From contig JAUTXB010000155.1 of NCBI GenBank assembly GCA_030838245.1, forward strand, positions 1 to 6,013: 6,013 bases of DNA. Reading direction: 5' to 3'. The DNA comes from Acidimicrobiaceae bacterium (lineage in GTDB: Bacteria; Actinomycetota; Acidimicrobiia; Acidimicrobiales; RAAP-2). A program made the position numbers and the translations under genes. The notes below the pieces were generated by a model, which saw only the letters and a program-made list of their open reading frames with translations, was not told the origin of the DNA and did no database searches. This document shows, piece after piece, positions 1 to 6,013 of this stretch (positions within the stretch are counted from its first letter, which is position 1; every line of letters begins with the position of its first letter).

Positions 1-1204
1 CGACACTGATCCCGTCATCGGGAAGGGCGCGCAGGAGGTTCATGAGAACGATCCGGCCCTCAGGGTCCAACATCGCCGTCGATTCATCGGAGACAAGCAG
101 CCGCGGCTGGCGAGCCAGCGCCGAAGCAACCGCCAGTCGCTGCAACTCGCCCCCGGACAGGGTCGCAGTCTCTCGGTCGGCGAAATCGGCCAGCCCGACC
201 CGGGCCAGGAGACCCTCGGTGTCGATCACTCGCGTGCTCGGAAGCCCCCAACGCAGGTCGTCTCGGACGCGGACGCCGAGCACCTGTGCATCGGGGCGTT
301 GGAAGATGAGGGCGCTGCCCCCCCGAGCCCCGAGGCCGGGCCCACCATCTCGAACAACGGCGCCCTCGGTGGGAGCAGCTCCCACCAGCAAACGGGCCAG
401 CGTCGACTTTCCCGAACCGTTGTGCCCGACGATCGTGAGCAGTTCACCGGGACCAAGCTGCAGTCCGACGTGGAGGAGAGCCCAGTGCTCACTGTCGGGA
501 TAACGGAAGGAGACGTCATCCATGCGGACCGGAACGGGAGCGGGGTCCCGACCATCATGGTGGTCGAAGGTCAGCGACCGCGGGTTCCCGAGAGCGTCGA
601 GTGCATGCAGGGCACCCCGAGCGGCTAGCCAACCGAGTAGGCAACCTGCCACCACCAGAACGAAGAGCCCAATGGGGATGGCGAGCCACCAGAAGCGGGT
701 GGCCCAGCTGACCGTGGCGTCCCCGGCGTGGGCTATTCCACCGAGTCGCAAGCTCCGCAGGGTCTGGCCGATACCGCTCCAGCTGTTTCGAGTCTGGTCA
801 ATCGAGAGGCTGCGCAGACTGGTGAACAAGGCGAGGAACCCGACCGTGACCACAGAAACCAGCGGCCAGAACAAAAGGATGCCGGTGGCCACTGTGCGTA
901 CCGGGCCCCAGTGGCGACGATGGCCGTGACCTATCAGTGCGCCAAGGGCGGTACAGACGGCTACGGATACCACCACCCGATCACCGGCAGCCAGAAAGCC
1001 CACGAACATCGCGGCCAGGCCCCCCACGAGCGCAGCCCGAAGTCGGTGCCTGGCCGCGATGGCGGCCATGGGGAGGAGACCCAGAACCACCAGGGCGCTT
1101 CCGAAGGGCACGAACCTGCTGACCAAGCAGAGCGCCAAGGTCAGATCACCGAGGACGACCGCTTCTGCCAGCTCGAGTGAATCCAGTGAGCGAGTCCTGG
1201 CCAC
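1..1204 (-). CDS. ECF transporter fusion: S-like membrane domain plus ATPase (partial)
   Basis: The gene runs off the left edge; 401 codons are visible. Residues 1-205 are hydrophobic with about five or six membrane segments (roughly 12-32, 34-52, 56-74, 77-93, 103-128, 170-196). This resembles a DUF2232/YybS-like ECF substrate-binding component. From about residue 225 an ECF-type ABC ATPase follows: Walker A GHNGSGKST (260-268, bases 401-427), Q-loop FQRPDAQ (Q302), signature LSGGE (349-353, bases 146-160) and Walker B LLVSDE with D373 and E374 (bases 80-100). The DESTAMLDP stretch and FQ..D.Q pattern are typical of EcfA/CbiO. The protein would bind a small molecule, usually a vitamin or metal, and energise its transport with an EcfT partner not seen here. 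Actinobacterial relatives (Rv2326c type, from memory) carry a second ATPase domain, which would lie beyond the edge. The start is the GTG at 1202-1204, the first good start after an in-frame TGA at 1226-1228. No clear ribosome binding site is seen, so the start is uncertain. The substrate is unknown. Confidence 0.88.
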   Translation of the reverse strand, partial: MARTRSLDSLELAEAVVLGDLTLALCLVSRFVPFGSALVVLGLLPMAAIAARHRLRAALVGGLAAMFVGFLAAGDRVVVSVAVCTALGALIGHGHRRHWGPVRTVATGILLFWPLVSVVTVGFLALFTSLRSLSIDQTRNSWSGIGQTLRSLRLGGIAHAGDATVSWATRFWWLAIPIGLFVLVVAGCLLGWLAARGALHALDALGNPRSLTFDHHDGRDPAPVPVRMDDVSFRYPDSEHWALLHVGLQLGPGELLTIVGHNGSGKSTLARLLVGAAPTEGAVVRDGGPGLGARGGSALIFQRPDAQVLGVRVRDDLRWGLPSTRVIDTEGLLARVGLADFADRETATLSGGELQRLAVASALARQPRLLVSDESTAMLDPEGRIVLMNLLRALPDDGISV

Positions 1205-1216
1205 TAGCTGCAGATA

Positions 1217-1229
1217 CTGAGCGGCTCAG
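1217..1229. promoter_or_regulatory. Dyad CTGAGC-G-GCTCAG just upstream of the ECF gene
   Basis: A perfect inverted repeat with 6-base arms around a single central G lies 13 to 25 bases upstream of the proposed GTG start (1204) of the minus-strand ECF gene. It overlaps where a ribosome binding site or promoter core would sit. A repressor operator is a reasonable reading, but the binding factor is unknown and one short dyad in GC-rich DNA can occur by chance. Confidence 0.3.
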
Positions 1230-1554
1230 CCAGCGAGAGTCGAAAGAGCATCAAGACTCACGCGCTACGGCGTGGCGACGTTGTTCTGGCCCTCGGACAG
1301 TGCAGCTGGGTTCTCACGAGGGATTCAGGATAGGTGTTGCTTCCTGATGTGGACTGACCCTGGGGATGGTCATTCTCAGCAGCTTTTCAGTACCAAGATG
1401 GGTGTCGCCAGGTCGGATGGCGGCGCCGGAATTGCCTGGGCCCTCAAGCCAACCGCCTGCTCCAACGGTCTCTGGGCAGCAACTCCAGGGAGGTCCAGGT
1501 CACCCACTAGAGACGCGGGTCCATCCCGATTGGCTGGCATTCTTAGCTGATTCT

Positions 1555-1591
1555 CACGTTCGTGTCACGTGATCGTAAGGTTCGAACCCTA
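1555..1591. promoter_or_regulatory. Cluster of palindromes, candidate operator region
   Basis: Three symmetric elements lie in 37 bases: CACG-TT-CGTG (1555-1564), directly abutting the 8-base palindrome TCACGTGA (1565-1572), then GGTTCGAACC (1579-1588), which extends to TAaGGTTCGAACCcTA (1576-1591) with one mismatched pair. A TATCTT hexamer at 1590-1595 could be a plus-strand -10 box overlapping the last palindrome, but no good -35 was seen at standard spacing. The position, mid-way between two divergent transcription units, fits a shared regulatory site. Neither the regulator nor the promoter is identified. Confidence 0.35.
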
Positions 1592-1861
1592 TCTTCGCTT
1601 GAGATGGTTCGCGCCCGCATGAACAGAGAGCTGTTACGGACCATGGCGCTGGTTGGGAGTTCTGCGAGCGACCTGGCGCCCCACCTGCCAATGTCGTCGG
1701 AGCACGAATGATGGTCACCGCCTCGTGGCCGGACGTCTCGGGCCAGTCACGAGATGCGGGCGCTCCAGGCGCCGGAGATGATGGCATTTGCGCCGACGGG
1801 GGTCGCATCCCCGGGCTAACAAGCCCTTCCGCTCGACGGCGTCATCAGCGATCCTGGGGCT

Positions 1862-1876
1862 CGGAACCTAGTTCCG
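1862..1876. promoter_or_regulatory. Dyad CGGAAC-CTA-GTTCCG
   Basis: This is a perfect inverted repeat with 6-base arms and a 3-base centre, about 140 bases upstream of the oxidoreductase gene. It could be an operator or, if transcribed, a tight hairpin in the leader. It is not followed by a T-run, so it is not a typical intrinsic terminator. Function is unknown. Confidence 0.25.
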
Positions 1877-1934
1877 GTCGTCGAACGTGGACCAGGCCCA
1901 ATCCGTCATGAGCCGTAGTGTTCGGCCCCGGTTA

Positions 1935-1948
1935 GTGGCGTCCGCCAC
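1935..1948. promoter_or_regulatory. Dyad GTGGCG-TC-CGCCAC upstream of the redox operon
   Basis: A perfect inverted repeat with 6-base arms and a 2-base centre lies 66 bases before the proposed start of the oxidoreductase gene. The two-base centre is too tight for a stable RNA loop, so a DNA-level site for a dimeric regulator is the better guess. A TTGACC at 1970-1975 follows, but no -10 box at a normal distance was found, so no promoter is called. Confidence 0.28.
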
Positions 1949-2013
1949 CATGAACGCGTGAATCCGCCGTTGACCACACCGGAGGCAATACTTGGTGACC
2001 CGGACTGTGTGCA

Positions 2014-3423
2014 GTGCCCGCCCCGGTAGGAGAACAGAAACCCCGATGGACCGCGAGACCCGGGGTGCCTCACCACACGGGCGCGCGCTCGTCGGTCACA
2101 CTGGACCAACCGACCCGAGAGGCGCTGGTGGCGGTGGTCGTCGGCGCCGGCGCGGTATTGGTTTGCCTCATGTGGTGGCTCGATACGGCACCGGCGTCGG
2201 TCGTCGGCATCGGACCGTGGCTGACCGCCGCCGGCCGGGTAACCGGGCTCGTTGGTACGTACTTGGTCGTCATCGAGGTGCTCCTGATGGGGCGCGTGGC
2301 GTGGCTCGACCGATTGATCGGAATGGACCGACTGGCCGTATGGCACCGGCGGAACGGCGAGTACAGCATCACTTTGCTCGTCGCCCATGCAGTCCTGACC
2401 ATCTGGGGCTATGCGATCACGGCTCACACTGGCGTGGTGTCCGAGACCAATTCGGTGATCTTCACGTACACAGACATGTTGGCTGCCACCGTCGGCCTCG
2501 GCCTTCTCGTCGCTGTGGGCGTGATCTCCGCCCGGTCACTCCGCCGTCGCGTCAGCTACCACACCTGGTACTTCATTCACCTGTACACCTACATCGCCCT
2601 GGCCTTGTCGTTCGCTCACCAGTTCGCCACCGGAGTGGACTTTGCCACCCACCCCCTCAACCGGGCGCTGTGGATCGCCCTGTATGGGGTAGTCGGCCTC
2701 CTGCTGGTCTCTTATCGGATCGGAAAGCCGGTTCGCGACGGGCTCCGCCACCAGCTGCGAGTGGCGCGCGTGGTCAATGAAGGACCAGCCCTGACCTCGC
2801 TCTACGTCACTGGGAACCGGCTGGCTGAGCTCCGGGCGGAGTCTGGCCAGTTCTTCATGTGGCGGTTCTTGACCAGGGAAGGCTGGTGGCAGGCCCACCC
2901 CTACTCGCTGTCGGCAGCTCCGAACGGGGAGTGGCTCCGGCTCACGGTGAAACACCTGGGTGACCACAGCTCTGGGCTCGCCGGGCTCCGTCCGGGCATC
3001 CGGGTGTTGTCCGAAGGACCCTATGGCGCGTTCACCGGGCGACGCCGAACCCGCCGCAAGGTCCTCTTGATCGGCGGGGGCGTCGGCATCACACCCCTGC
3101 GGGCGTTGTTCGAGTCCCTCCCGGGCGCCTCCGGCGATGTCACCTTGATCTACCGGGCCCGGAACCTTGAGGACATCGCCTTTCGAGAGGAGCTGGAATC
3201 CATCGCGGCCGCACGGCGGGCACAGCTGCACTACCTGGTGGGACCAAGCCGACAGCACCCCGAGTACCTGACCTCCCGCCATCTACTCCACCTCGTGCCT
3301 GACCTTGCGCGGCGCGACGTCTACGTATGCGGTCCGCCGAGCATGACCAAGGTCACCACCGCCGCCCTGGAGGAGACGGGCGTCCCCCGCCGGCACATTT
3401 ACCAAGAAGACTTCGAACTCTAA
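2014..3423 (+). CDS. Ferric-reductase/NOX-like haem-flavin membrane oxidoreductase
   Basis: This 469-residue protein combines a ferric-reductase-like transmembrane domain (about 35-235, roughly six helices) with a cytosolic ferredoxin-NADP reductase-type module (about 245-469). It should carry electrons from NAD(P)H via FAD and haem across the membrane. Likely haem ligands are H111 and H125 in one helix and H189 and H202 in another, spaced 14 and 13 as in NOX enzymes. FAD binding is shown by HPYSLS (295-300), nucleotide binding by GGGVGITP (354-361) and CGPPSM (439-444), with GPYG at 335-338. The C-terminus ends in QEDFEL. The next gene, for an FMN-binding protein, begins 10 bases downstream, which suggests that protein as electron acceptor. 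The GTG start at 2014 is the first start in frame after the TGA at 1996-1998 apart from a CTG at 2005. It lacks a clear ribosome binding site, and GTG 2065 is an alternative. The family call is firm; the physiological acceptor is inferred. Confidence 0.92.
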   Translation: MPAPVGEQKPRWTARPGVPHHTGARSSVTLDQPTREALVAVVVGAGAVLVCLMWWLDTAPASVVGIGPWLTAAGRVTGLVGTYLVVIEVLLMGRVAWLDRLIGMDRLAVWHRRNGEYSITLLVAHAVLTIWGYAITAHTGVVSETNSVIFTYTDMLAATVGLGLLVAVGVISARSLRRRVSYHTWYFIHLYTYIALALSFAHQFATGVDFATHPLNRALWIALYGVVGLLLVSYRIGKPVRDGLRHQLRVARVVNEGPALTSLYVTGNRLAELRAESGQFFMWRFLTREGWWQAHPYSLSAAPNGEWLRLTVKHLGDHSSGLAGLRPGIRVLSEGPYGAFTGRRRTRRKVLLIGGGVGITPLRALFESLPGASGDVTLIYRARNLEDIAFREELESIAAARRAQLHYLVGPSRQHPEYLTSRHLLHLVPDLARRDVYVCGPPSMTKVTTAALEETGVPRRHIYQEDFEL

Positions 3424-3433
3424 GGAGCCTGTC

Positions 3434-3925
3434 ATGCACCGAGCCGTCATCGCAGCCGCCGGAACCGTCGTAGGCCTGGTCGCCTTGCTGGGCTACAAGT
3501 CTTCTTCGGGCACCATCAAGAGCTCTCCCGTTGCCGTCCAGTCGCCATCGACGCCGTCCGCCCCCAGCTCATCCACGACTCAGCCGCCAAGCACTACGCC
3601 TCCCGCCGCCGGGACCCAGACCACGCCTCCGACATCCACGCCCAGCACCACGACTACCTTCACCGGGAACGACGTGCAGTACCAATACGGCGACATTCAG
3701 ATCCGGATCACAATGCGCGGCGGCAAGATCACCAACATCGCCACCCCCCAGGAGTCGGCGACCGACTCACGCTCGCAGTCCATCAACTCGCAGGCCGTGC
3801 CGATTCTCACGCAAGAGGCGCTGACCGCTCAGAGCATGCAGTTCGATGTGGTGTCGGGCGCCACCTTCACCAGCGACGCCTTTGCCCAGTCCCTCCAATC
3901 CGCCTTGACCAAGGTCGGCAAGTGA
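3434..3925 (+). CDS. Membrane-anchored FMN-binding domain protein
   Basis: This is a 163-residue extracytosolic flavoprotein. Residues 4-20 form a hydrophobic signal or anchor with no lipobox Cys and no twin Arg, so Sec export with an uncleaved anchor is likely. Residues 28-77 are a low-complexity linker rich in Pro, Ser and Thr. Residues 78-160 are a single small FMN-binding domain ending in the flavinylation motif SGAT (141-144, bases 3854-3865), where T144 should receive FMN through a phosphoester bond made by ApbE. The domain resembles the FMN-binding domain of RnfG/NqrC-type and extracellular electron transfer proteins. AAGGAG at 3422-3427, overlapping the upstream stop, sits six bases before the ATG and fixes the start. 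The oxidoreductase lies upstream and apbE overlaps its end by four bases, which supports a donor, carrier and maturation set. The direct electron acceptor is unknown. Confidence 0.9.
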   Translation: MHRAVIAAAGTVVGLVALLGYKSSSGTIKSSPVAVQSPSTPSAPSSSTTQPPSTTPPAAGTQTTPPTSTPSTTTTFTGNDVQYQYGDIQIRITMRGGKITNIATPQESATDSRSQSINSQAVPILTQEALTAQSMQFDVVSGATFTSDAFAQSLQSALTKVGK

Positions 3926-4710
3926 AACCGGCGCGCCATGCCGAGGCGGTAATGGGCACCGTGGTCAGCATCGAGATACGGACTCAGGGCCCTCAGGCAG
4001 AGCTGCAGAACTCGATCGACCGGGTCGTAGCCGACCTACACTGGGTCGACGCCACGTTCAGTACCTACAAGCCAGACAGCGAGATCAACCGGCTCGATAG
4101 GGGCGAGCTGACCACCAGTGACTGCCACCTGCTCGTCCGAGAGGTCCTCGCCCTGTGCGACCAGCTGCACTCCGAGACGGGCGGCTACTTCGACGCCCGG
4201 GCTGGTGGTCATCTCGATCCGTCCGGTCTGGTGAAAGGATGGTCGGTGGAGCGTGCGTCGGCGCAGCTGACAGCGGATGGTTGGCCCGACCACGCCATTG
4301 ACGCTGGCGGCGACGTACGCCTACGGGGGAAGACCGGCGTCGGGCGGCCCTGGCAGGTGGCCCTTCGCCACCCGTTCCAGCTCGACGCGTTCTGTGCAGT
4401 GGTCGGCCTCGCCGAGGGGGCGGTTGCCACTTCTGGAACCTATGAGCGCGGCTTCCATGTCATCGACCCCCACCGGGGCCGGCCGGCCACGGCGGTGTCC
4501 GCCCTCACCGTCATCGGCCCGGAGCTGACCAGGACCGACGCCTACGCCACGGCCGCGGTGGCCATGGGCCTCGACGCTCCCCTCTGGCTGGACAGCCTTG
4601 TCGACTACGAAGCCTTCTTGATCGACGCCGACGGCAACGGCTGGGCCACTTCCGGCTTCGACCGTTACCGTCTCACCGGTCGTGATCCAACTCCACGCGG
4701 ATCGATATGA
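3922..4710 (+). CDS. apbE: FAD:protein FMN transferase (ApbE family)
   Basis: The enzyme transfers FMN from FAD to a Thr or Ser in a flavinylation motif, with Mg2+; its likely substrate is the protein encoded just upstream. ApbE hallmarks appear in order over 262 residues: MGTVVSIEI (11-19), FSTYKPDSEINRL (46-58), DPSGLVKGWSVERA (99-112), DAGGDV (127-132), VATSGTYERGFHVIDP (168-183), GRPA (186-189) and LTRTDAYATA (202-211). D206 and T210 match the metal-site pair by spacing. It is shorter than the usual 300-350 residue ApbE lipoproteins and has no signal peptide or lipobox, so it looks cytosolic. The GTG start overlaps the preceding stop as GTGA (3922-3925), a translational-coupling arrangement. 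No other start in frame offers a signal sequence. Confidence 0.93.
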   Translation: MKPARHAEAVMGTVVSIEIRTQGPQAELQNSIDRVVADLHWVDATFSTYKPDSEINRLDRGELTTSDCHLLVREVLALCDQLHSETGGYFDARAGGHLDPSGLVKGWSVERASAQLTADGWPDHAIDAGGDVRLRGKTGVGRPWQVALRHPFQLDAFCAVVGLAEGAVATSGTYERGFHVIDPHRGRPATAVSALTVIGPELTRTDAYATAAVAMGLDAPLWLDSLVDYEAFLIDADGNGWATSGFDRYRLTGRDPTPRGSI

Positions 4711-4729
4711 CGAAGTACTGCGGGCTACC

Positions 4730-5482
4730 GTGAGCACTCAACGCCTGGAGGAGCCGCGGGAGCCGGCCCGTCTCGTCCAAGTGGGGCAGGTGGCATCGCA
4801 GGTAGGCGGGGTGACCGTGGTCGGCACCTCCCTGTCTCACCGCTATCCAGGACCCCTCGGCGAGGTCTCAGTACTCGAGGACGCCACGTTCGAGGTGCCC
4901 GCAGGTGGGTACGCAGCGTTGGTGGGAGCCTCGGGAGCGGGCAAGACCACCCTGCTTGCCTTGATCGGCGGCCTGGAACGCGTCCAATCAGGAAGCCTGT
5001 TGGTCGGCGGGCTCGACGTGGCTGTCCTCGGAGGCGACTCCCTGGCCGCCTATCGCCGCATGACCGTTGGATTCATCTTTCAGAACTTCGGGCTTCTCGA
5101 GGCATTGACCGCATTGGAAAACGTTGAAATGGCGGCGGTCCTGGCCGGGGAACGAGCAGCGATTCGCCGGGTCCGCGCACGGGAGCTACTGGAATCCGTG
5201 GGCATGAGCCACCGATTGGGCCACCGACCGGGGGCCCTCTCAGGTGGAGAACGCCAGCGGGTGGCGATAGCCCGAGCACTGGTGAACCGGCCGCGTCTGG
5301 TCCTGGCCGACGAGCCCACCGGTAACCTCGATGCCGATACCTCCGAGGACGTAATGCGCTTGTTGGAGTCGCTTCGAGAGGACCACGGGTGCACGCTCTT
5401 GGTCGTCACCCATGACAGGATGCTCGCCCGGAGGGCCTCCGAGCGGCTCGCCCTCGATCGTGGTCGGATCGAAGCGTCGTGA
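4730..5482 (+). CDS. ABC transporter ATPase, MacB/LolD type
   Basis: This is a cytosolic ATPase subunit of 250 residues from the start chosen. Walker A is GASGAGKTT (66-74), the Q-loop is FQNFGLLE (Q118), the signature is LSGGERQR (170-177), Walker B is LVLADE (190-195) followed by PTGNLD, and the H-loop is VVTHD (H228). The FQNFGLL and ADEPTGNLD forms are typical of the MacB/LolD/FtsE group, which works with FtsX-like permeases on lipoproteins, peptides or envelope processes. Such a permease follows 27 bases downstream. The gene begins 19 bases after apbE and is probably in the same operon. The start is uncertain: GTG at 4682 would overlap apbE, GTG 4730 is chosen, and GTG 4811 is also possible; none has a strong ribosome binding site. 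The substrate is unknown; a role in exporting or maturing the redox proteins is only inferred from position. Confidence 0.9.
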   Translation: MSTQRLEEPREPARLVQVGQVASQVGGVTVVGTSLSHRYPGPLGEVSVLEDATFEVPAGGYAALVGASGAGKTTLLALIGGLERVQSGSLLVGGLDVAVLGGDSLAAYRRMTVGFIFQNFGLLEALTALENVEMAAVLAGERAAIRRVRARELLESVGMSHRLGHRPGALSGGERQRVAIARALVNRPRLVLADEPTGNLDADTSEDVMRLLESLREDHGCTLLVVTHDRMLARRASERLALDRGRIEAS

Positions 5483-5509
5483 CCGATCGGCCGTGACGGC
5501 GATGATCCG

Positions 5510-6013
5510 ATGAACTGGGTCGACGCCTTCCGCCTCGCACTGCGAAGCGTCTTACGCCGTCCCGGTCGCGCCGCGTTGACCGTAACGGCCGTCGCCCTCG
5601 CTGCTGCCCTCTTTACCGCCATGCTGACCATGGCGGCGACGGCCCAAGGCCGTGTCCTGAACCAGCTGGCCAACGGAGGACCGTTGGCCGGGATACAGGT
5701 AGCGGCGGCGGGGGCCAACCCGTCGCAACTCGGCAGCGACAATCCGACTCAGGGAGCTCCCAAACCCATCACGCAGGCGGCACGGTCACGCATCGGCCAC
5801 CTTCCCGGCGTGGTATCCGTTCTCCCGATCGTGACGGCCCAGACGGTGGTTGTGTGGCAGAACCATCCTGTCGCCCCGACAGCAGTGAGGAACGAACCCG
5901 ATGGTTCGCGCCGCGCCGTCTTCGACGAGATGGTAGGGATCGATCTCAGCCGCGCCGCCGACCTTCCAATCACCGTGCTCGAGGGCCATCTTCCGGTACC
6001 CGGCTCGCTGACT
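5510..6013 (+). CDS. ABC transporter permease, MacB/FtsX type (partial)
   Basis: The N-terminal 168 residues of a permease are cut off by the right edge. The start shows a short amphipathic cytosolic segment with RLALRSVLRRPGRAALT (residues 8-24), then one membrane helix at about 21-43. An outward-facing domain of the MacB periplasmic-core kind then begins, with LPGVVSVLPIV (97-107). Full-length members have about 400 residues or more, with three further helices near the C-terminus, which would lie outside. The ATG at 5510 is the only start after the in-frame TGA at 5480-5482. The gene pairs with the ATPase just upstream. In this family the pump typically transmits force across the membrane rather than moving small solutes through a channel. 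The cargo cannot be deduced here. Confidence 0.85.
   Translation, partial: MNWVDAFRLALRSVLRRPGRAALTVTAVALAAALFTAMLTMAATAQGRVLNQLANGGPLAGIQVAAAGANPSQLGSDNPTQGAPKPITQAARSRIGHLPGVVSVLPIVTAQTVVVWQNHPVAPTAVRNEPDGSRRAVFDEMVGIDLSRAADLPITVLEGHLPVPGSLT

What the first reader, a model, noticed from the sequence alone, without database searches (positions are those of the whole stretch)
2014..4710. Compact three-gene flavin electron-transfer cassette
Seen: a haem/FAD/NAD(P)H membrane oxidoreductase, an anchored one-domain FMN protein with SGAT motif, and ApbE are consecutive, spaced by 10 bases and then overlapping by 4. Known: ApbE attaches FMN to such motifs, and FMN-binding domains act in extracytosolic electron transfer. 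Inference: the three form a minimal route from cytosolic NAD(P)H to an outside acceptor such as a metal, a quinone or a periplasmic reductase partner.
Basis: partly seen in the sequence, partly recalled or inferred. Interest (0 to 1): 0.7.

Follow-up and report, generated by a model that had tools for sequence, protein, structure and literature searches.

The report
Flavin electron-transfer cassette with leaderless ApbE
Three neighbouring genes encode a known type of bacterial electron line from inside the cell to a flavin-carrying protein outside, and the enzyme that attaches the flavin seems to work inside the cell, before its target is exported.

Summary
2014-4710 holds a six-helix, two-haem, FAD/NAD(P)H oxidoreductase, an N-anchored single FMN_bind protein (DVVSGAT, T144) and ApbE, spaced by 10 bases and then overlapping by 4. 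The order is conserved: 52 of 80 loci fetched from named genomes have all three genes in a row. [quoted passage not shown] It is a new member of a known kind.

ApbE beside the FMN_bind gene has no export leader in 61 of 61 sequences, although its target looks exported. In a 236-genome sample of the phylum, 38 of 52 genomes with a leadered ApbE also carry the FAD-export subunit EetB (PF07456), against 0 of 60 with only leaderless ApbE. None of 29 cassette genomes carries it. I infer that FMN is attached in the cytosol and crosses the membrane on the protein. Topology, covalent FMN and acceptor were not tested; shared ancestry was not controlled.

The parts
2014..3423 (+). Fre: six-helix ferric-reductase/NOX-like membrane protein with C-terminal FAD and NAD(P)H domains (469 aa, GTG start)
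   Evidence: Pfam PF01794, PF08022, PF00175; AF2 mean pLDDT 90.1, six long helices then a reductase fold; best fold match SpNOX 8qt6, TMt 0.79
2344..2388 (+). haem histidines H111 and H125 (H-x13-H), codons 2344-2346 and 2386-2388
   Evidence: invariant in the 71-row alignment and in 34-sequence A3
2578..2619 (+). haem histidines H189 and H202 (H-x12-H), codons 2578-2580 and 2617-2619
   Evidence: invariant
3434..3925 (+). FMN_bind: membrane-anchored protein with one FMN-binding domain (163 aa)
   Evidence: PF04205; alignment A1; best solved relative 8p2a, E 1.9e-21
3434..3499 (+). N-terminal anchor MHRAVIAAAGTVVGLVALLGYK: basic residue, then hydrophobic stretch, then Ser/Thr/Pro-rich linker
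   Evidence: alignment; max 15-residue hydropathy 2.56; residues 2-3 are RR in 106 of the 120 listed proteins, HR in 7 including the window, KR 6, KI 1
3845..3865 (+). flavinylation motif D138-V-V-S-G-A-T144, FMN acceptor T144
   Evidence: fits Dxx[ST]GA[ST] (PMC10339131); V140-S-G-A-T144 invariant in 20-sequence A1; first residue is D in 84 of 120 listed proteins, N in 34, Y in 2
3922..4710 (+). ApbE: FAD:protein FMN transferase, short form, no leader (262 aa, GTG start overlapping the FMN_bind stop)
   Evidence: PF02424; AF2 mean pLDDT 90.7; best fold matches are ApbE/Ftp structures; H179, D206, T210 align with E. coli H271, D299, T303; no leader
4682..5482 (+). neighbour, probably not part of the conserved unit: LolD/MacB-type ABC ATPase
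   Evidence: PF00005; best NCBIfam LolD, below its cut-off; a second GTG near 4730 would follow the ApbE stop; no close match in the 80 loci

Best explanation
An MsrQ-like flavinylation cassette. Fre takes electrons from cytosolic NAD(P)H through FAD and two stacked haems to the outer face of the membrane and passes them to an FMN bound covalently at T144 of the anchored FMN_bind protein, which hands them to an extracytosolic acceptor, perhaps ferric iron or a partner reductase (acceptor unknown). ApbE has no export signal, its gene overlaps that of its target, and it most likely attaches FMN from the cytosolic FAD pool to the target's unfolded DxxSGAT motif before the target is exported by Sec (or Tat where a twin arginine exists), so no FAD exporter is needed. 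Shown here: genes, domains, motifs, gene order, absence of leader, absence of the EetB exporter family in relatives' genomes. Inferred: topology, electron flow, covalent FMN, order of flavinylation and export. I put the electron route at about 0.8 and cytosolic flavinylation at about 0.55.
For: Domains and motif. Four haem histidines invariant in 71 rows and 34 sequences, and a NOX fold. Conserved order in 52 of 80 loci; 51 of 59 loci with apbE next door have an in-frame start codon from 8 bases before to 12 bases after the FMN_bind stop. Same architecture and route proposed in print (PMC8238504 section 10). A related domain, 8p2a, probably the Streptomyces azureus SaFMN3 domain whose covalent FMN was shown (PMC10339131). 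ApbE leaderless in 61 of 61 (60 loci and the window; highest hydropathy 1.13); leadered ones score 1.99 (E. coli Ftp), 2.70-3.12 (nine) and 1.58-3.65 in the larger sample. In 29 cassette genomes all 48 listed ApbE genes were read, none leadered. EetB in 0 of those 29; in a 236-genome sample EetB in 38 of 52 genomes with a leadered ApbE and 0 of 60 with only leaderless ApbE. In print: an outside ApbE needs outside FAD, and Listeria EetB/FmnA supply it (PMC9973259); ApbE labels short terminal tags, and one in vitro attempt on a folded target failed, probably for lack of access (PMC10722498).
Against: The cytosolic ApbEs named in the review passages I read act on cytosolic or fused targets (Klebsiella, kinetoplastids), and a normally periplasmic ApbE kept in the cytosol could not restore thiamine-free growth (PMC12052999). 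Published data say eetB does lie beside some MsrQ-like systems (PMC9973259). The narrower motif rule for Vibrio ApbE wants D first and G/A/I/Q second; the window has D then V, and 34 of the 120 listed proteins have N and 2 have Y first. Tat cannot be the general route: targets starting MIK, MRK or MQK exist and the window has MHR. SignalP was not available; leader and anchor calls rest on hydropathy. Other flavin exporters were not searched. Covalent FMN and the acceptor are untested.
Confidence: 0.6

Rival explanations
1. ApbE acts outside after all: it leaves the cytosol without a classical leader, alone or piggy-backed on its target, and uses external FAD.
For: The review describes ApbE as membrane-bound and mostly secreted (PMC12052999); multi-FMN Streptomyces targets were read as matching an outside transferase (PMC10339131).
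Against: No leader in 61 of 61; no EetB exporter in 29 of 29 cassette genomes.
Confidence: 0.13
2. Fre is mainly a bacterial NADPH oxidase that reduces oxygen itself; the FMN protein is an accessory or a sink.
For: SpNOX is the closest solved structure by sequence and fold; SaFMN3 can use oxygen (PMC10339131).
Against: Fre directly before FMN_bind in 72 of 80 loci points to FMN as partner.
Confidence: 0.12
3. The FMN_bind domain faces the cytosol or is never flavinylated, so the cassette is not an outward electron line.
For: ApbE lacks a leader; topology untested; the motif departs from the narrower Vibrio ApbE rule.
Against: Basic N-terminus before a single hydrophobic stretch and a Ser/Thr/Pro-rich linker favour outside; SGAT invariant in A1.
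Confidence: 0.09
4. The unit works with the downstream LolD/MacB-type ABC transporter, for example in export or metal handling.
For: Same strand, with ORF overlap (start 4682) or a short gap (start near 4730) after apbE; FtsX/ATPase genes sit with an FMN_bind protein in Bifidobacterium sifABCDE (PMC5449479); L063 (Chloroflexi MAG) has a moderately similar ATPase (150 bits) about 1.6 kb after apbE.
Against: The permease matched none of the 80 loci; the ATPase matched ORFs in 8 of 80 loci, apart from L063 at 60-91 bits against 549 for itself.
Confidence: 0.06

Closest known systems
MsrQ-like flavinylation clusters of Actinobacteria (Meheust et al. 2021, PMC8238504)
   Same: PF01794 protein with C-terminal NAD-binding domain, FMN_bind protein and apbE side by side; same electron route proposed
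   Different: No structural difference found.
Listeria flavin-based extracellular electron transfer (FmnB/PplA/EetB/FmnA; PMC9973259, passages)
   Same: ApbE-type enzyme flavinylates an outside protein
   Different: Listeria uses an outside ApbE fed by an ECF-type FAD exporter; here ApbE is leaderless and 29 of 29 cassette genomes have no EetB
SpNOX, Streptococcus pneumoniae NADPH oxidase (8qt6, 8qq7)
   Same: membrane haem part and FAD/NADPH domain of the same fold
   Different: 18-19% identity in the structural alignment; oxidase activity untested for the window protein; an FMN_bind/ApbE partner for SpNOX was not looked for
SaFMN3 of Streptomyces azureus (PMC10339131, passages)
   Same: actinobacterial N-anchored FMN_bind protein, shown to carry threonyl-FMN
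   Different: three FMN domains against one here
Cytosolic ApbE of Klebsiella (review PMC12052999, passages)
   Same: leaderless ApbE
   Different: its target is a soluble fumarate reductase; here the target is predicted exported

Membership tests
MsrQ-like flavinylation system | PF01794 protein encoded within five genes of an FMN_bind or ApbE gene | tested here: met
   PF01794 55.2 bits against cut-off 28; adjacent genes; definition
MsrQ-like flavinylation system | signal peptide or lipid site in at least one flavinylation gene | tested here: inconclusive
   FMN_bind has an N-terminal hydrophobic anchor; SignalP not available
MsrQ-like flavinylation system | two haem-binding sites (four histidines) in six helices | tested here: met
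   H111, H125, H189, H202 invariant in the 71-row alignment; six long helices
ApbE FMN transferase | PF02424 and ApbE fold with catalytic His and metal-site Asp/Thr | tested here: met
   the residue roles are recalled, the alignment is
Exported (lipoprotein) ApbE | N-terminal export leader | tested here: not met
   hydropathy scan, 0 of 61; no ATG/GTG/TTG start before 3922 in the frame
FMN_bind, flavinylated | Dxx[ST]GA[ST] motif | tested here: met
   D138-V-V-S-G-A-T144 (rule)
FMN_bind, flavinylated | narrower rule for Vibrio ApbE, D-[GAIQ]-[IALVF]-[ST]-G-A-[ST] | tested here: not met
   second residue is V (rule); the cognate ApbE may differ in taste
FMN_bind, flavinylated | covalent FMN on the threonine | not testable with these tools
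   needs gel fluorescence or mass spectrometry
NADPH oxidase (SpNOX) | NOX fold with H-x13-H and H-x12-H (spacing recalled) | tested here: met
NADPH oxidase (SpNOX) | direct oxygen reduction | not testable with these tools
   needs enzyme assay
ECF-fed extracytosolic flavinylation (Listeria type) | EetB (PF07456) FAD exporter in the genome | tested here: inconclusive
   absent from 29 of 29 relatives' genomes, but the window's own genome is not held

The most novel reading that the evidence does not exclude
Actinomycetota use two compartments for the same modification. Lineages with an outside ApbE usually carry an FAD exporter. Lineages with only leaderless ApbE, including the Fre-FMN-ApbE group, attach FMN in the cytosol and send the flavin across the membrane already fixed to the protein, through Sec for many cassette targets and through Tat for twin-arginine proteins. 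This would be export of a cofactor by its carrier protein in place of a dedicated flavin exporter.
Probability: 0.5. Interest if true: 0.6.

Novelty: new member of a known kind. Interest (0 to 1): 0.38.

Why it matters
The cassette itself adds one more case (closest named relatives are Acidimicrobiales) to a published, still uncharacterised class. The leaderless ApbE matters more. The review I read treats ApbE as mostly an outside enzyme whose target is modified after export, which demands exported FAD. If actinobacterial cassettes are loaded inside, that requirement disappears, assignments that insist on a signal peptide on ApbE would miss real systems, and the question of how a flavin crosses the membrane becomes testable in Streptomyces.

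Tried and rejected
Own-genome search: not held. FMN riboswitch or other Rfam RNA: no match at gathering thresholds. Promoters and terminators: within what shuffles give. Tat as the general export route: rejected as universal, because targets with MIK, MRK or MQK starts exist and the window has MHR; the RR counts (62 of 81) may be inflated by upstream reading of long ORFs. A leadered ApbE elsewhere in the same genomes: not seen among all 48 ApbE genes listed for 29 genomes (partly drafts, so a missing gene is possible; I sent 30 of my 80 loci). The downstream ABC genes and the upstream ECF gene as conserved partners: no close match in the 80 loci; ABC ATPase hits in 8 loci and ECF hits in 7 loci are generic apart from the L063 ATPase. 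Neighbour-family clustering gave mostly shadow ORFs of GC-rich DNA and was not used.

Corrections made on the way. In one search my frame picker failed for several loci; one search replaced it. In one search the frames for L090 and L086 were wrong; one search replaced them. In one search four loci (L180, L188, L191, L194) were indexed wrongly because contigs were short; one search showed all four to be leadered. I first cut at hydropathy 1.9; three lipobox-bearing leaders (L202, L209, L195; 1.58-1.83) fell below, and I moved them to leadered after seeing the sequences. The raw table was 33 (leader, EetB), 12 (leader, no EetB), 5 (leaderless, EetB), 62 (leaderless, no EetB); the corrected one is 38, 14, 0, 60. 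Dropped: G219 and G187 (gene cut by contig end; what is left of G187 looks like a lipobox leader); G043 was added as leaderless. The match list was cut by the tool, so a few weak ApbE copies may be unread. The Fisher values ignore ancestry and are not used as evidence. In one search two loci (L081, L092) exceed 1.5 only upstream of their first start codon and were counted leaderless. L039 holds a second, weak ApbE match that was not read.
Full report
Check of the observation. The three ORFs, their coordinates, the 10-base gap and the 4-base overlap are exact. All three proteins pass Pfam cut-offs. The closest named protein relatives are from Acidimicrobiales (P0003 and P0113; P0123 and P0155), so the window most likely comes from an uncultured member of that group; its own genome is not held.

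Fre. The membrane half has H111-x13-H125 and H189-x12-H202, invariant in a 71-row alignment of the window and its locus relatives and in the 34-sequence alignment A3. This is the two-haem pattern of ferric reductases and NADPH oxidases (pattern recalled). AlphaFold2 gives mean pLDDT 90.1 and six long helices before a reductase fold. The best solved relatives are SpNOX by sequence (8qt6, E 1.1e-15) and by fold (TMt 0.79). NADH or NADPH preference was not determined.

FMN_bind protein. It has a basic N-terminus, one hydrophobic stretch, a variable Ser/Thr/Pro linker and one FMN_bind domain; V140-S-G-A-T144 is invariant in alignment A1 (20 sequences). The first motif residue is D in 84 of the 120 listed proteins, N in 34 and Y in 2; over the 80 loci and the window it is D in 73, N in 7, S in 1. 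The general rule Dxx[ST]GA[ST] (PMC10339131) fits the window; the narrower rule found for Vibrio ApbE wants G, A, I or Q at the second place (PMC10722498) and the window has V. So the cognate ApbE may read a somewhat different motif. The best solved match is 8p2a (E 1.9e-21). Its companion 8p2b is named there as domain 1 of the Clostridiaceae FMN4 protein, so 8p2a is probably the SaFMN3 domain of Streptomyces azureus, whose covalent FMN was shown (PMC10339131, passages). By positive-inside reasoning the domain faces outward; this is inference.

ApbE. H179, D206 and T210 align with E. coli Ftp H271, D299 and T303 (roles recalled). The model (mean pLDDT 90.7) matches ApbE/Ftp structures first. 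Compared with E. coli Ftp, residues 126-177 have no counterpart, and Pfam matches to such copies fall in two pieces, about 1-74 and 124-266: the cassette has a short ApbE.

Gene order. Fre-FMN-ApbE stand consecutively on one strand in 52, Fre-FMN alone in 20, FMN-ApbE without Fre upstream in 7, FMN only in 1. Sources include Acidimicrobiaceae, Kitasatospora, Streptomyces, Microbispora, Terrabacter, Intrasporangium, Humibacillus and six Chloroflexi records (L063, L064, L074-L076, L080, phylum of the last four recalled). Of 59 loci with apbE next door, 51 have an in-frame start codon from 8 bases before to 12 bases after the FMN_bind stop, and 23 of the 59 have the 4-base overlap as an option. 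The downstream ABC permease of the window matched none of the 80 loci; the ATPase matched ORFs in 8, the strongest in L063 (150 bits against 549 for itself), the rest 60-91 bits.

Known or new. Meheust et al. 2021 (PMC8238504; I read the abstract, section 10 and passages; [quoted passage not shown] The window fits this class.

Where is FMN attached? Using the highest mean hydropathy of any 15 residues in the 65 residues before the ApbE domain, 61 of 61 ApbEs beside FMN_bind (60 loci and the window, best match per locus) have no leader (highest value 1.13). Leadered controls: E. coli Ftp 1.99, nine ApbEs 2.70-3.12, larger sample 1.58-3.65. I sent 30 of the 80 loci to whole-genome search; they lie in 29 genomes, some with no apbE beside the Fre-FMN pair. 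All 48 ApbE genes listed there were read; none has a leader with a start codon in front of it. These are partly draft genomes.

An outside ApbE needs outside FAD; in Listeria an ECF-type exporter with EetB (PF07456) and FmnA supplies it (PMC9973259, passages). I used PF07456 as a marker. It is in 0 of the 29 cassette genomes. In a sample of 236 genomes from the phylum of a Kitasatospora (G004), 114 have ApbE and 38 have PF07456, all 38 among the 114. After the corrections listed under Tried and rejected, 52 genomes have a leadered ApbE, of which 38 have EetB; 60 have only leaderless ApbE, of which none has EetB; 2 could not be judged. G004 is in both sets. Against a simple rule, the same paper reports eetB beside some MsrQ-like systems, and 14 of 52 leadered genomes lack EetB.

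Route of export. Among the 120 listed FMN_bind proteins (of 536 hits, the window's own included), residues 2-3 are RR in 106, HR in 7 including the window, KR in 6, KI in 1. Wider loci include MIK, MRK and MQK starts. Tat can thus serve some but not all. In two sampled genomes with only leaderless ApbE (G056, G083) five long FMN_bind proteins carry SRRxF-type signals, which fits folding and flavinylation inside; another G083 target (L176) looks like a Sec lipoprotein. ApbE labels short terminal tags and, in one engineered case, failed in vitro on a folded target, probably for lack of access (PMC10722498, passages). That SecYEG passes bulky rigid attachments is recalled from Bonardi et al. 2011; I saw only its title in a reference list.

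Literature. Searches for leaderless, cytosolic or pre-export flavinylation of exported targets returned no paper whose title or abstract start, as listed, describes it; one search counted one 'cytosolic flavinylation' in PMC8238504, which is not found in the main text held. The review PMC12052999 (passages) names cytosolic ApbEs for cytosolic or fused targets.

Verdict. A well-conserved, ordinary member of a published class, with a consistent feature that I did not find discussed: the flavin transferase has no export signal while its target looks exported.

Noticed in passing
window 2-1204, - strand: ECF-type transporter ATPase fused to an N-terminal membrane part (weak DUF2232, below cut-off), cut by the window edge; only generic ABC hits (37-64 bits against 863 for itself) in 7 of the 80 loci.
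   Followed up: partly
window 4682-6013, + strand: LolD/MacB-type ABC ATPase whose ORF overlaps the end of apbE, followed by a cut permease (MacB_PCD, below cut-off); possibly co-transcribed with the cassette in this lineage.
   Followed up: partly
window 3922-4710 and L081-L128: Cassette ApbE is a short form lacking the counterpart of E. coli Ftp residues 126-177; 12 of the 29 genomes also hold a full-length leaderless ApbE (L081-L092).
   Followed up: partly
FMN_bind relatives: The first motif residue, said to be essential for Vibrio ApbE, is N in 34 of the 120 listed proteins and Y in 2.
   Followed up: partly
L013, L016, L021: Streptomyces loci with two Fre-FMN pairs in tandem, only the second followed by apbE; the second FMN protein has two motifs in L016 and L021.
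   Followed up: no
L165, L168, L171, L172, L177 (G083, G056): FMN_bind proteins in open frames of 611-712 codons with twin-arginine signals, in genomes whose listed ApbEs are all leaderless.
   Followed up: partly
236-genome sample: All 38 PF07456 (EetB) genomes also have ApbE; none of the 122 genomes without an ApbE match has it.
   Followed up: yes
window 1205-2013: About 800 bases without a convincing gene between the divergent ECF gene and the cassette; no Rfam match.
   Followed up: partly
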